Origin: Halovivax gelatinilyticus
GTDB taxonomy: Archaea > Halobacteriota > Halobacteria > Halobacteriales > Natrialbaceae
Length of the DNA stretch: 64,000 nt
Assembly: GCF_024300625.1 (NCBI RefSeq)
Contig: NZ_CP101322.1
Span: 1,749,992-1,813,991, forward strand
Direction: 5' to 3'
Part shown: piece by piece, positions 35,161 through 42,844 of the stretch
Layout of the letters: each line of letters opens with the position of its first letter
Position numbering within the stretch: the first letter of the stretch is position 1
Notes under the pieces: model-generated
The model's database searches: none
What the model was told of the DNA's origin: nothing
The model's input: only the letters and a program-made list of their open reading frames with translations
Program-made: the position numbers and the translations under genes

Positions 35161-36318
35161 ATGACTCATCTCGATCGAGCCCTTGATCGACGGACCGTTT
35201 TGACGATGACCGGGGCGGGTGCGCTGGCCACGCTTGCCGGTTGTATCGGCTCTAGCGACGAAGACGACGAGGCGCCGTCAACACCCGACGAGTCGGAGAG
35301 CGGATCCGGCGACGACGGTCCGCTGACCGACTACGACTACACCGCGCCGCCGCCGATCGTCGACCTCCACGAGCAGGGCTACGAGTCGACGCTCAAGACC
35401 GTCCCGGCCCGTCACCAGTTAGTGGCCGACGGAGCCGAAGGGGGACCGATCACGCTGGAGGAAGTCTGGGCGTTCCAGGCCGACGATCACGCGCCGAGTG
35501 TTCCGGGGCCGATTTATCGGGTTCCTGAAGGAGAGACCGTCGAACTCACCTACGAGAACACGGAACACAACCACGACCACACGCTTCACGTACACGCGGT
35601 AAACAAATCGTGGCACGACGACGGCGCACCCGACACGACGGGCCACGAGATGGTCCACCCCGGAGAGTCGGGAATCTACACGATCGAGGCCGACGTCCCG
35701 GGGACGCACTTCTATCACTGTCACGTCCAGACGGACACGCACCTCGAAATGGGAATGTACGGCATCTTCCACGTCATCCCCGAAGATCGCGAGAAACCCG
35801 ACCGCGAGTACTTCCTGACGATCCGTGACTGGGACACCCGCCTCCACGACCAGTACGCCGGCGGCGATTCGGAGTACGATCCGGTTGATCGACGGACCGA
35901 CACCTACACGATCAACGGCCGGTGCGCCCCGACGACGTTCCACCCCGAACTCGGGACCCCGCTCATCGTCGAGGAGGGCGAGCGGGTCAGACTGCACGTC
36001 GTCAACGCCGGCTACGATTCTCATCCGTTCCACACCCACCGTCACCGCTTCCAGACGGTCCGGAAAGACGGCGGTCGGATCGACCCAGTCGCCCGTCACG
36101 ACGAGGACGTGGTCACCATCGGACCCGCCGAGCGATACACGATCGAGTTCGACGCCGACGCAGAGCCCGGGCTGTACCCAGTCCACTGTCACAAGGTCGA
36201 CCACGTCACGAACCAGGGCGTCTACGCCGGCGGGATGTTGACCTCCATCGTCTACGAATCCGCGATGGAGACGGAGGAGTTCGCGGCCGTCATGGACGAG
36301 GCCGGCTTCGAGGGCTAA
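35161..36318 (+). CDS. Two-domain multicopper oxidase, Tat lipoprotein
   Basis: 385 residues. A twin-arginine signal (DRRTVLTMTG) and lipobox LAGC with Cys28 predict export and lipid anchoring, followed by an acidic linker (31-57). Two cupredoxin domains are visible. Domain 1 has HVH (143-145), H183 and HCH (186-188) with H194 and M197/M199. Domain 2 has HPFHTH (288-293) and HCH (342-344) with H348. Both domains therefore carry a Cys-containing type 1-like motif plus His pairs for a trinuclear centre. This resembles two-domain laccase/nitrite-reductase ancestors. Likely an extracellular copper oxidase, with Cu, Mn or phenolic substrates possible. Confidence 0.87.
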   Translation: MTHLDRALDRRTVLTMTGAGALATLAGCIGSSDEDDEAPSTPDESESGSGDDGPLTDYDYTAPPPIVDLHEQGYESTLKTVPARHQLVADGAEGGPITLEEVWAFQADDHAPSVPGPIYRVPEGETVELTYENTEHNHDHTLHVHAVNKSWHDDGAPDTTGHEMVHPGESGIYTIEADVPGTHFYHCHVQTDTHLEMGMYGIFHVIPEDREKPDREYFLTIRDWDTRLHDQYAGGDSEYDPVDRRTDTYTINGRCAPTTFHPELGTPLIVEEGERVRLHVVNAGYDSHPFHTHRHRFQTVRKDGGRIDPVARHDEDVVTIGPAERYTIEFDADAEPGLYPVHCHKVDHVTNQGVYAGGMLTSIVYESAMETEEFAAVMDEAGFEG

Positions 36319-36353: not shown

Positions 36354-36647
36354 TTACTGAACGTACAACGAGTAGGCGATCACCAGAAAGCCGATCAGGA
36401 CGAGCACGCTCTCGACGAGAACGCCGAATTCGAGGCTGACGTCGAGAATTTCGTGGAGCAAGCCGGCGAAGGCGAGTCCGAGCGTGACCAGCCCGAATCC
36501 GGTCGCCAGCAGTCCGAGGGCCCGTTGTCTGGTTCGTCGATACGCCTTGAACGCGAAGTAGGTGATCACGCCACCGACGATCAGGACGAGCGTCTTCACG
36601 ACGGCCAGGGCGATGGTCACCTCCGTTGTAGCTGTGTATAGGCTCAT
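36354..36647 (-). CDS. DUF7521-like three-helix membrane protein
   Basis: A 97-residue protein from ATG 36647 (MSLYTATTEV), with three hydrophobic segments and the pattern VLIVGGVITYFAFKAYRRT followed by LGLLATGFGLVTLG. This matches a haloarchaeal family of small membrane proteins found next to wHTH regulators. The start codon overlaps the stop of the upstream regulator by 4 bp (ATGA). The function is unknown; it may sense or act with the regulator. Confidence 0.75.
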   Translation of the reverse strand: MSLYTATTEVTIALAVVKTLVLIVGGVITYFAFKAYRRTRQRALGLLATGFGLVTLGLAFAGLLHEILDVSLEFGVLVESVLVLIGFLVIAYSLYVQ

Positions 36648-37021
36648 GTTTCTCGTCTGACCTCCGACCACAGATCGGCGAGTCGTTCGTCGGCCGTTCG
36701 GGCGGGCCGCTCGACTGCGACGTCGAGGGTGTGGTCTTCGTCCATGGTAATTCTGATCTCTTCGAACGCGATCGAGTACTTACTCGCGTGGTGACCGTCC
36801 CGTCGTATCTCGGTCGACTCCTCGAGCAGCGTCGCGTCCGTGAGCTGCTCTAACTTTCGATAGAGCGTCGACTGGGGGATGTCACATCGCTCCTGTATCT
36901 CCGCGGCCGTCAGCGGCGTTTCGAGCGCGCGGATGATCTCGCGACAGTCCGGATCGTCGAGCGCCGCACAGACTTCGGCGGCAGAAGGTTCGTTCGTGGA
37001 TGCGAGCGGATCCCGGACCAT
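36644..37021 (-). CDS. Winged helix-turn-helix transcriptional regulator
   Basis: A 125-residue ArsR-like wHTH protein. DNA-binding helices lie in CREIIRALETPLTAAEIQERCDIPQSTLYRKLEQL, read in blocks, and are followed by a beta wing (DGHHASKYSI) and an acidic C-terminal strand region. ATG 37021 (MVRDPLAST) is preferred; an in-frame GTG at 37078 would add 19 residues. It is coupled to the DUF7521-like gene. It converges with the multicopper oxidase gene, so regulation of that gene is possible but not shown. Confidence 0.8.
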   Translation of the reverse strand: MVRDPLASTNEPSAAEVCAALDDPDCREIIRALETPLTAAEIQERCDIPQSTLYRKLEQLTDATLLEESTEIRRDGHHASKYSIAFEEIRITMDEDHTLDVAVERPARTADERLADLWSEVRRET

Positions 37022-37388
37022 TCGTACGGGGCTTCTCACCGCCCCCTCATAGTCGCGTCGGTGACGAACAACGCTCACAGTGGCCCGAATCGAACGTATT
37101 CGGCTCTCTCACTCTCGTCTGAACCAGCGAGTGGCGTGCGTGGAAACTGTTCTCGCATTCGAGCCCTCGAACGAAGCGCCCTTACGCGCGCGTGACCGAG
37201 CGTACGACGCGCGGGTATCATCCGATCAGACCAGACCTACGAGGGCGGCGTGACCGATCGGCCTCCGCCCGCGCGATACTACTCCTGATGGCGCCGTCGT
37301 CGGGTACCGGACCAGTACGCTTCAGCTCAGGTAGCCTGACAGCGTCCAGTAGACGAATCTCGCCGGCCAAACGTGGTTGTCATTCACA
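37022..37388. other. Non-coding region upstream of the rRNA promoters
   Basis: About 370 bp between the regulator gene and the first rRNA promoter. Short frames exist, but none has a family feature. No RNA or repeat is recognised. Confidence 0.4.
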
Positions 37389-38026: not shown

Positions 38027-39499
<1,473 letters not shown>

Positions 39500-39565
39500 A
39501 CTGATCGGGACTGGGGCGACGCCCCAGCCCACTATCGGTCTGCGTTCGCACGATCGCCGTTTCGG

Positions 39566-39593
39566 CCGATCGAGCACCTTTGAACTGTCGAGG
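39566..39593 (+). other. 16S processing stem, 3' strand
   Basis: Complementary partner of 37904-37931; see that entry for pairing. It lies 66 nt after the mature 16S end and before tRNA-Ala. Confidence 0.8.
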
Positions 39594-39619
39594 CTAACGA
39601 ATCCCCTCTCTCGAGGGGT

Positions 39620-39691
39620 GGGCCCATAGCTCAGTGGGAGAGTGCCTCCTTTGCAAGGAGGATGCCCTGGGTTCGAATCCCAGTGGGTCCA
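39620..39691 (+). tRNA. tRNA-Ala (TGC) in the 16S-23S spacer
   Basis: Acceptor strands GGGCCCA and TGGGTCC close the molecule with discriminator A39691. The anticodon loop TTTGCAA gives TGC at 39652-39654, and the T-loop is GGTTCGAATCC. No intron and no encoded CCA. Its location is the standard euryarchaeal spacer position. Confidence 0.97.
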
Positions 39692-39721
39692 TGTCTCGGG
39701 TGATGATCGTGAACCGATCCC

Positions 39722-39729
39722 CTTAAGTG
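39722..39729 (+). promoter_or_regulatory. Internal promoter in the 16S-23S spacer
   Basis: gaaccgatccccttaagtgg resembles P4 before 16S (CCCTTAAGTG core). It lies between tRNA-Ala and 23S and could supply extra 23S-5S transcripts. Confidence 0.55.
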
Positions 39730-39835
39730 GGTGACGGCGCTACGATTTGATCCCGACGAACCGATGCACCACTCCGCGCAAGCGTGGGTGGGAAGGGTTG
39801 ATGCACGCCGGCCGTCTACCGGCGCTGCAAATGAG

Positions 39836-39882
39836 ACTGTGTGTACGTGTAGTCCAGGCGTCCACTGGACCCGTTCCCGGGT
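39836..39882 (+). other. 23S processing stem, 5' strand
   Basis: ACTGTGT and TACGTGTAGTCCAG (39836-39857) pair with 42888-42910, and CTGGACCCGTT-CCGGGT (39865-39882) with 42863-42880 apart from one mismatch. The unpaired 39858-39864 and 42881-42887 segments, with a short GCG/CGC helix, form a bulge-helix-bulge site for excision of pre-23S. Confidence 0.8.
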
Positions 39883-39927
39883 CACAATTCGTTACACCTC
39901 TGGTGTAACACACCGATCCGTAAGAAC

Positions 39928-42844
<2,917 letters not shown>

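What the first reader, a model, noticed from the sequence alone, without database searches (positions are those of the whole stretch)
35161..36318. Two-domain multicopper oxidase with type 1-like motifs in both domains
Domain 1 has HCH with downstream His and Met, and domain 2 has HCH with downstream His. Known two-domain oxidases mostly keep one type 1 site; retention in both (type A) is rare and regarded as ancestral-like. The domain 1 motif carries a two-residue insertion before its His.
Basis: partly seen in the sequence, partly recalled or inferred. Interest (0 to 1): 0.5.

Follow-up and report, generated by a model that had tools for sequence, protein, structure and literature searches.

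The report
Haloarchaeal oxidase with two blue-copper sites
This salt-loving archaeon carries a two-domain copper oxidase whose sequence keeps a complete blue-copper site in both domains, a known but little-studied arrangement that is the rule in this archaeal enzyme family rather than an oddity of this genome.

Summary
Window 35161-36318 (+) encodes a 385-residue Tat-type lipoprotein with two cupredoxin domains. Domain 1 has H140-C187-H194-M199 and domain 2 has H288-C343-H348-M359, each a full type 1 copper set; eight further His form a trinuclear set. All 16 residues are identical in 88 of 88 unique full-length haloarchaeal relatives. By sequence it is a "type A" two-domain multicopper oxidase, a class already reported from haloarchaea (Ausec 2011). 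There it is common: 79 of 125 genomes of the window's family group carry a near full-length copy. The "two-residue insertion" is standard spacing for domain-1 sites of type C enzymes. The closest solved relatives, 3g5w and 2zwn, are type C: domain 2 has Asp for Cys but keeps the His ligands. Type A is one clade, but its place relative to types B and C is unresolved, so "ancestral" is untested. Copper geometry could not be checked: the model is weak in exactly those loops. New in passing: a DUF7521 membrane protein and a winged-helix gene conserved beside the oxidase.

The parts
35161..36318 (+). type A two-domain multicopper oxidase gene, 385 aa
   Evidence: ORF and translation; Pfam Cu-oxidase_3 + Cu-oxidase_2
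35182..35244 (+). Tat-type signal with lipobox (residues 8-28, RR...AGC)
   Evidence: read from the sequence; R10, R11, G27, C28 in 87 of 88 relatives. The names Tat and lipobox are from general knowledge
35578..35595 (+). domain 1 HTLHVH (H140 type 1; H143, H145 trinuclear set)
   Evidence: invariant 88 of 88; aligns with 3g5w and 2zwn
35716..35757 (+). domain 1 HCHVQTDTHLEMGM (C187, H194, M199 type 1; H186, H188 trinuclear set)
   Evidence: invariant 88 of 88 at the named residues; Cys+7 His spacing in all 88
36022..36039 (+). domain 2 HPFHTH (H288 type 1; H291, H293 trinuclear set)
   Evidence: named His invariant 88 of 88
36184..36237 (+). domain 2 HCHKVDHVTNQGVYAGGM (C343, H348, possible axial M359 type 1; H342, H344 trinuclear set)
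   Evidence: named residues invariant 88 of 88; Cys replaced by Asp in 3g5w, 2zwn and two Deinococcus proteins
36354..36671 (-). DUF7521 small membrane protein, conserved neighbour
   Evidence: PF24365 E 7.1e-32; next to the oxidase in 30 of 32 close relatives
36644..37078 (-). winged-helix regulator (HTH_20), conserved neighbour
   Evidence: PF12840 E 2.9e-14; next to the oxidase in 31 of 32 close relatives

Best explanation
It is a membrane-anchored (Tat lipoprotein) type A two-domain multicopper oxidase of haloarchaea. Shown here: the sequence, the two cupredoxin domains, and the invariance of two complete type 1 ligand sets and one trinuclear set. Inferred from related solved enzymes: it forms a trimer in which each trinuclear cluster lies between domain 1 of one subunit and domain 2 of the next, and each HCH motif wires a type 1 copper to a cluster. 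Each cluster would then have two type 1 coppers, one from each side (five coppers per subunit, fifteen per trimer), able to deliver electrons for reduction of O2 to water. The substrate is not shown. The most likely one is Cu(I), or electrons from a halocyanin-type blue copper protein outside the membrane, i.e. a copper-handling or extracellular electron-sink role rather than a lignin laccase.
For: Pfam domains. 16 of 16 ligands invariant in 88 of 88. Comparator table: the 16 columns are complete only in the haloarchaeal rows; type C rows lack the domain 2 Cys, type B rows lack the domain 1 set, NirK rows lack trinuclear His. Each domain alone is nearest to 3g5w or 2zwn, and the predicted fold matches 2zwn (Z 20.1, rmsd 3.7, 256 aligned) and 3g5w (Z 20.0, rmsd 4.0, 257 aligned), tied with CuNIRs and other small multicopper oxidases. 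Ausec et al. list haloarchaeal type A genes (passages read). Copper link: plastocyanin-type genes within the flanks of 14 of 42 loci, the source locus of the query included; the only other HTH-DUF7521 pair of this genome lies about 2.4 kb from a DUF326 Cys-rich protein gene.
Against: No coordinates of the model were available and its confidence is low at the two type 1 loops, so copper geometry is untested. M359 as axial ligand is uncertain: all four type C rows, which have no domain 2 Cys, still keep the GG motif before that position, with Met, Ile, Ile and Pro there. Trimerisation, copper content and O2 reduction are inferred from homologues. The neighbours of this gene differ between lineages, so no single pathway is indicated; NorB in the flank of 8 of 42 loci and CydAB at one locus point elsewhere than copper handling.
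Confidence: 0.8

Rival explanations
1. Domain 2 keeps the Cys and His but its site is redox-silent or structural; only the domain 1 site works, so the enzyme behaves like a type C oxidase.
For: Whole-protein and single-domain searches put type C enzymes first. In type C the domain 2 loop with its GG motif persists without Cys. The domain 2 loop to M359 is long and poorly modelled.
Against: C343, H288, H348 and M359 are invariant in 88 of 88. Type B proteins that use domain 2 for their type 1 site have the same kind of layout, HCHxxHH...GGGGL, as the window's HCHxxxH...GGM.
Confidence: 0.2
2. It is a copper nitrite reductase (NirK) relative working in denitrification.
For: NCBIfam Cu_nitrite_red matches at 68 bits, far under its 296-bit cut-off. 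NorB lies in the flank of 8 of 42 related loci.
Against: Where the two NirK rows have Asp and Ala, the full trinuclear His set stands in all 88. The genome has a separate NirK-like gene with the NirK residues.
Confidence: 0.04
3. It is a type A oxidase whose main role is phenol oxidation (a true laccase).
For: Closest solved relatives are named laccase or multicopper oxidase.
Against: No phenol-degradation genes appeared among the annotated neighbours that I looked at. A type B two-domain enzyme was judged unlikely to degrade lignin polymers efficiently in vivo (PMC13151041, abstract and passages).
Confidence: 0.2

Closest known systems
Type A two-domain multicopper oxidases of haloarchaea (listed by Ausec 2011 from Halogeometricum, Haloterrigena, Haloarcula marismortui and Halobacterium NRC-1)
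   Same: Type 1 sets in both domains; the Haloarcula marismortui pNG600 relative (P0001, match 51% identical) has all 16 residues
   Different: Nothing found that sets the window protein apart. That P0001 is one of Ausec's two H. marismortui genes was not checked by accession
Type C two-domain oxidases 3g5w (Nitrosomonas europaea) and 2zwn (metagenome)
   Same: Closest solved relatives (122 and 109 bits), same domain 1 site and Cys+7 spacing, same trinuclear His set
   Different: Domain 2 has HDH in place of HCH, so no type 1 Cys there
Type B two-domain oxidases (cyanobacterial, Deinococcus wulumuqiensis, DUF4396-fused, Leisingera and Burkholderia rows)
   Same: Domain 2 type 1 set and trinuclear His set; long loop with GG motif in the DUF4396-type rows
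   Different: Domain 1 has Thr, Ser/Thr/Pro and Gln at the type 1 His, Cys and His positions
Copper nitrite reductase NirK
   Same: Two-domain cupredoxin fold, domain 1 type 1 set
   Different: Lacks the full trinuclear His set and the domain 2 Cys

Membership tests
type A two-domain multicopper oxidase | two cupredoxin (Cu-oxidase) domains and no third | tested here: met
   PF07732 and PF07731 stretches, 385 aa
type A two-domain multicopper oxidase | type 1 ligand residues in domain 1 (H, C, H, M) | tested here: met
   H140 C187 H194 M199, 88 of 88
type A two-domain multicopper oxidase | type 1 ligand residues in domain 2 (H, C, H; axial residue) | tested here: met
   H288 C343 H348, 88 of 88; M359 as axial ligand is inferred
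type A two-domain multicopper oxidase | eight trinuclear-cluster His | tested here: met
   H143 H145 H186 H188 H291 H293 H342 H344, 88 of 88
type A two-domain multicopper oxidase | copper bound with type 1 geometry in both domains | tested here: inconclusive
   model pLDDT under 50 at 193-197 and 346-359, no coordinates
type A two-domain multicopper oxidase | homotrimer with interfacial clusters; oxidase activity | not testable with these tools
   single chains only; no assay
type C two-domain multicopper oxidase | type 1 site in domain 1 only | tested here: not met
   domain 2 also has Cys and both His
type B two-domain multicopper oxidase | type 1 site in domain 2 only | tested here: not met
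   domain 1 also has the full set
copper nitrite reductase (NirK) | type 2 site with Asp and a reduced His set | tested here: not met
   positions 143 and 188 are His, not Asp and Ala as in the two NirK rows; under the NCBIfam cut-off
three-domain laccase | three cupredoxin domains | tested here: not met
   385 aa, two domains

The most novel reading that the evidence does not exclude
Haloarchaeal type A oxidases really run with five coppers per subunit, so that every trinuclear cluster has two distinct electron inlets: one in domain 1 for a halocyanin-type partner and one in domain 2 for a small donor such as Cu(I). They would be governed by a dedicated winged-helix plus DUF7521 membrane-protein module. 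Type C enzymes would have arisen from such an enzyme by loss of the domain 2 Cys.
Probability: 0.25. Interest if true: 0.55.

Novelty: new member of a known kind. Interest (0 to 1): 0.3.

Why it matters
Type A enzymes are the class in which both sites survive together with a trinuclear cluster, yet none of the solved entries whose alignments I read shows both Cys in a two-domain protein. A widespread, strictly conserved haloarchaeal family makes the question of two electron inlets per cluster testable by spectroscopy and single Cys mutants. For this window alone the finding is ordinary.

Tried and rejected
Rejected: NirK (residues wrong; a separate NirK-like gene exists). Rejected: the domain 1 insertion as a special feature. 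Not usable as support for an old type A state: a tree of 29 rows with the type 1 columns removed; type A is one side of a branch (98/100), but the branch that puts types B and C together has only 68/85, and an A+C clade is not rejected (p-AU 0.22). Two three-domain rows (L106, L108) were dropped before that tree; their rows are misaligned in domain 2. Led nowhere: the viral-contig scan found no relative; a general clustering of ORFs around the oxidase was swamped by antisense ORFs; PHROGs gave nothing for three neighbours.

Caveats on counts: relatives come from searches with this protein, ranked from the best down, so distant haloarchaeal copies that had lost a site could be missed. The 79 of 125 was counted by hand from listed rows. 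Most context loci have only 1.5 kb of flank. The 42 loci include the window, the source loci of the queries and some repeats of one genome. Outside the class, searched 392 genomes of the phylum, 84 matching; three of these lie outside the window's order and match weakly (best E 2.2e-23); they were not examined.

Literature: statements about print rest on the searches. Lawton 2009 and Nakamura and Go 2005 are not held, and the original paper with the A/B/C scheme was not seen.

Full report
Observation. The ORF lies where stated: ATG 35161, stop ending 36318, 385 aa, plus strand. Pfam gives Cu-oxidase_3 at residues 113-208 and Cu-oxidase_2 at 257-352. Residues 8-28 read as a Tat signal with a lipobox Cys (motif names from general knowledge). 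The ligand positions are, in domain 1, H140, H143, H145, H186, C187, H188, H194, M199, and in domain 2, H288, H291, H293, H342, C343, H344, H348, M359.

Conservation. A first alignment of 54 family members (L002, the NirK-like paralogue, set aside) had all 16 positions invariant. A wider set used 115 loci: 3 copies under 360 aa were dropped and duplicates collapsed, leaving 88 unique full-length proteins; again 16 of 16 positions were identical in 88 of 88. Cys-to-His spacing is 7 in domain 1 and 5 in domain 2 in all 88; His-to-Met in domain 2 is 11 in 83 and 15 in 5. Strict conservation of both Cys argues that both sites are used, but the set was gathered by similarity to this protein.

What it is. 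PDB relatives by sequence are first 3g5w and 2zwn, for the whole protein and for each domain alone (the query begins one codon early). Both have HCH with Cys+7 His in domain 1 and HDH in domain 2. A table of comparators separates the classes. The haloarchaeal rows have all 16 residues. Four type C rows (two Deinococcus, 3g5w, 2zwn) lack the domain 2 Cys but keep H288 (4 of 4) and H348 (3 of 4). Eight type B rows have Thr, Ser/Thr/Pro and Gln at the domain 1 His, Cys and His. Two rows like 7rab (Rubrobacter, Rhodococcus) have the domain 1 set and no domain 2 Cys. Two NirK rows have Asp and Ala at two trinuclear positions. A ninth type B-like row (Leifsonia) was added for the tree and its motifs were read only by eye. 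His residues retained in type C are what loss of a former domain 2 site would leave, but this is not proof.

Structure. AlphaFold2 with a 16-sequence alignment gave mean pLDDT 63 and pTM 0.68, with pLDDT under 50 at 193-197 and 346-359. The fold matches small two-domain oxidases and CuNIRs: 3gdc (Z 20.9, rmsd 3.2, 248 aligned), 5zl1 (Z 20.4, rmsd 3.3, 254 aligned), 2zwn (Z 20.1, rmsd 3.7, 256 aligned), 7rab (Z 20.0, rmsd 3.1, 246 aligned) and 3g5w (Z 20.0, rmsd 4.0, 257 aligned), all within 1 of each other and so tied (Foldseek list). Copper geometry was not tested.

Known status. Ausec et al. 2011 (PMC3192119, passages) state that type A genes found in their searches came solely from Archaea, naming Halogeometricum, Haloterrigena, Haloarcula marismortui and Halobacterium. 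Rese et al. 2026 (PMC13151041, abstract and passages) repeat the A/B/C scheme and characterise a type B enzyme. A 2022 paper (PMC9038741, passages) uses 'ancestral' for two-domain proteins with two type 1 sites that lack type 2 and 3 sites, which is not this protein. A 2022 Haloferax mediterranei survey (PMC9240420, passages) lists an uncharacterised multicopper oxidase-domain protein. I found no characterised type A enzyme in the listings, which cover only an open-licence library.

Distribution and phylogeny. Of 125 genomes of the window's family group, 121 have some match at E 0.001, and 79 have a near full-length match at E below 1e-100. In a class sample, 276 of 292 had some match, which includes NirK and other relatives. 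Haloarchaeal type A is one side of a branch (98/100) among 29 rows; its relation to types B and C is open.

Surroundings. Convergent to the oxidase lie DUF7521 (36354-36671) and a winged-helix gene (36644-37078). Among 32 close relatives (60-72% identical) a winged-helix relative is present in 31 and DUF7521 in 30, downstream on the opposite strand. Among 58 more distant loci, 19 have a winged-helix relative upstream on the opposite strand and 11 a DUF7521; most of these loci have only 1.5 kb of flank. The own genome has only two DUF7521 genes over the cut-off. A caution: the trio sits about 1 kb from an rRNA operon, and so it does in relatives whose flank reaches far enough (L119, L016 and L117 from one genome or near-copies, L115), so part of the synteny may be plain inheritance of a stable place. 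The distant loci, with another orientation, speak for a real link. In other lineages the oxidase stands near NorB (8 of 42 loci), a plastocyanin-type protein (14 of 42), or a CtaA-DsbA-DsbB-CPBP set (2 of 42).

Mechanism. By analogy with solved trimers, electrons would pass from either type 1 copper through its HCH motif to the trinuclear cluster at the subunit interface, where O2 is reduced. That the two inlets have different donors is speculation. Substrate: copper handling or blue-copper-fed oxidation is my first guess; it rests on weak context evidence.

Verdict. A sound observation; a member of a known class, common in haloarchaea, with no biochemistry that I could find.

Noticed in passing
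window 36354-37078 (-): DUF7521 membrane protein and winged-helix regulator conserved beside type A oxidases (30 and 31 of 32 close relatives; 11 and 19 of 58 distant loci, there in another orientation).
   Followed up: partly
L135 4174-4584 and 7027-7700 (own genome): The genome's only other HTH-DUF7521 pair lies near a DUF326 Cys-rich protein, a DsbA-like protein and a pyridine nucleotide-disulphide oxidoreductase, suggesting a metal-related role for such pairs.
   Followed up: partly
L134 1755-7437 (own genome): NirK-like gene in a cluster with a UbiA/CtaA fusion, a plastocyanin-type protein, SCO1 and a thioredoxin-like protein.
   Followed up: partly
L112 6133-8415: In Halobellus limi the oxidase is directly followed by a NorB nitric oxide reductase gene; NorB lies in the flank of 8 of 42 loci.
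   Followed up: partly
window 38027-42842 (+): Complete SSU - tRNA-Ala - LSU rRNA operon starting about 1 kb beyond the winged-helix gene; the oxidase trio keeps this place in several relatives.
   Followed up: partly
L064 2288-3610 and L065 2261-3580: Deinococcus plasmid type C oxidases with an extra C-terminal stretch that looks like a third small cupredoxin (read by eye).
   Followed up: no
L043 and L018: Copies of the oxidase with an interrupted frame in two relatives.
   Followed up: no
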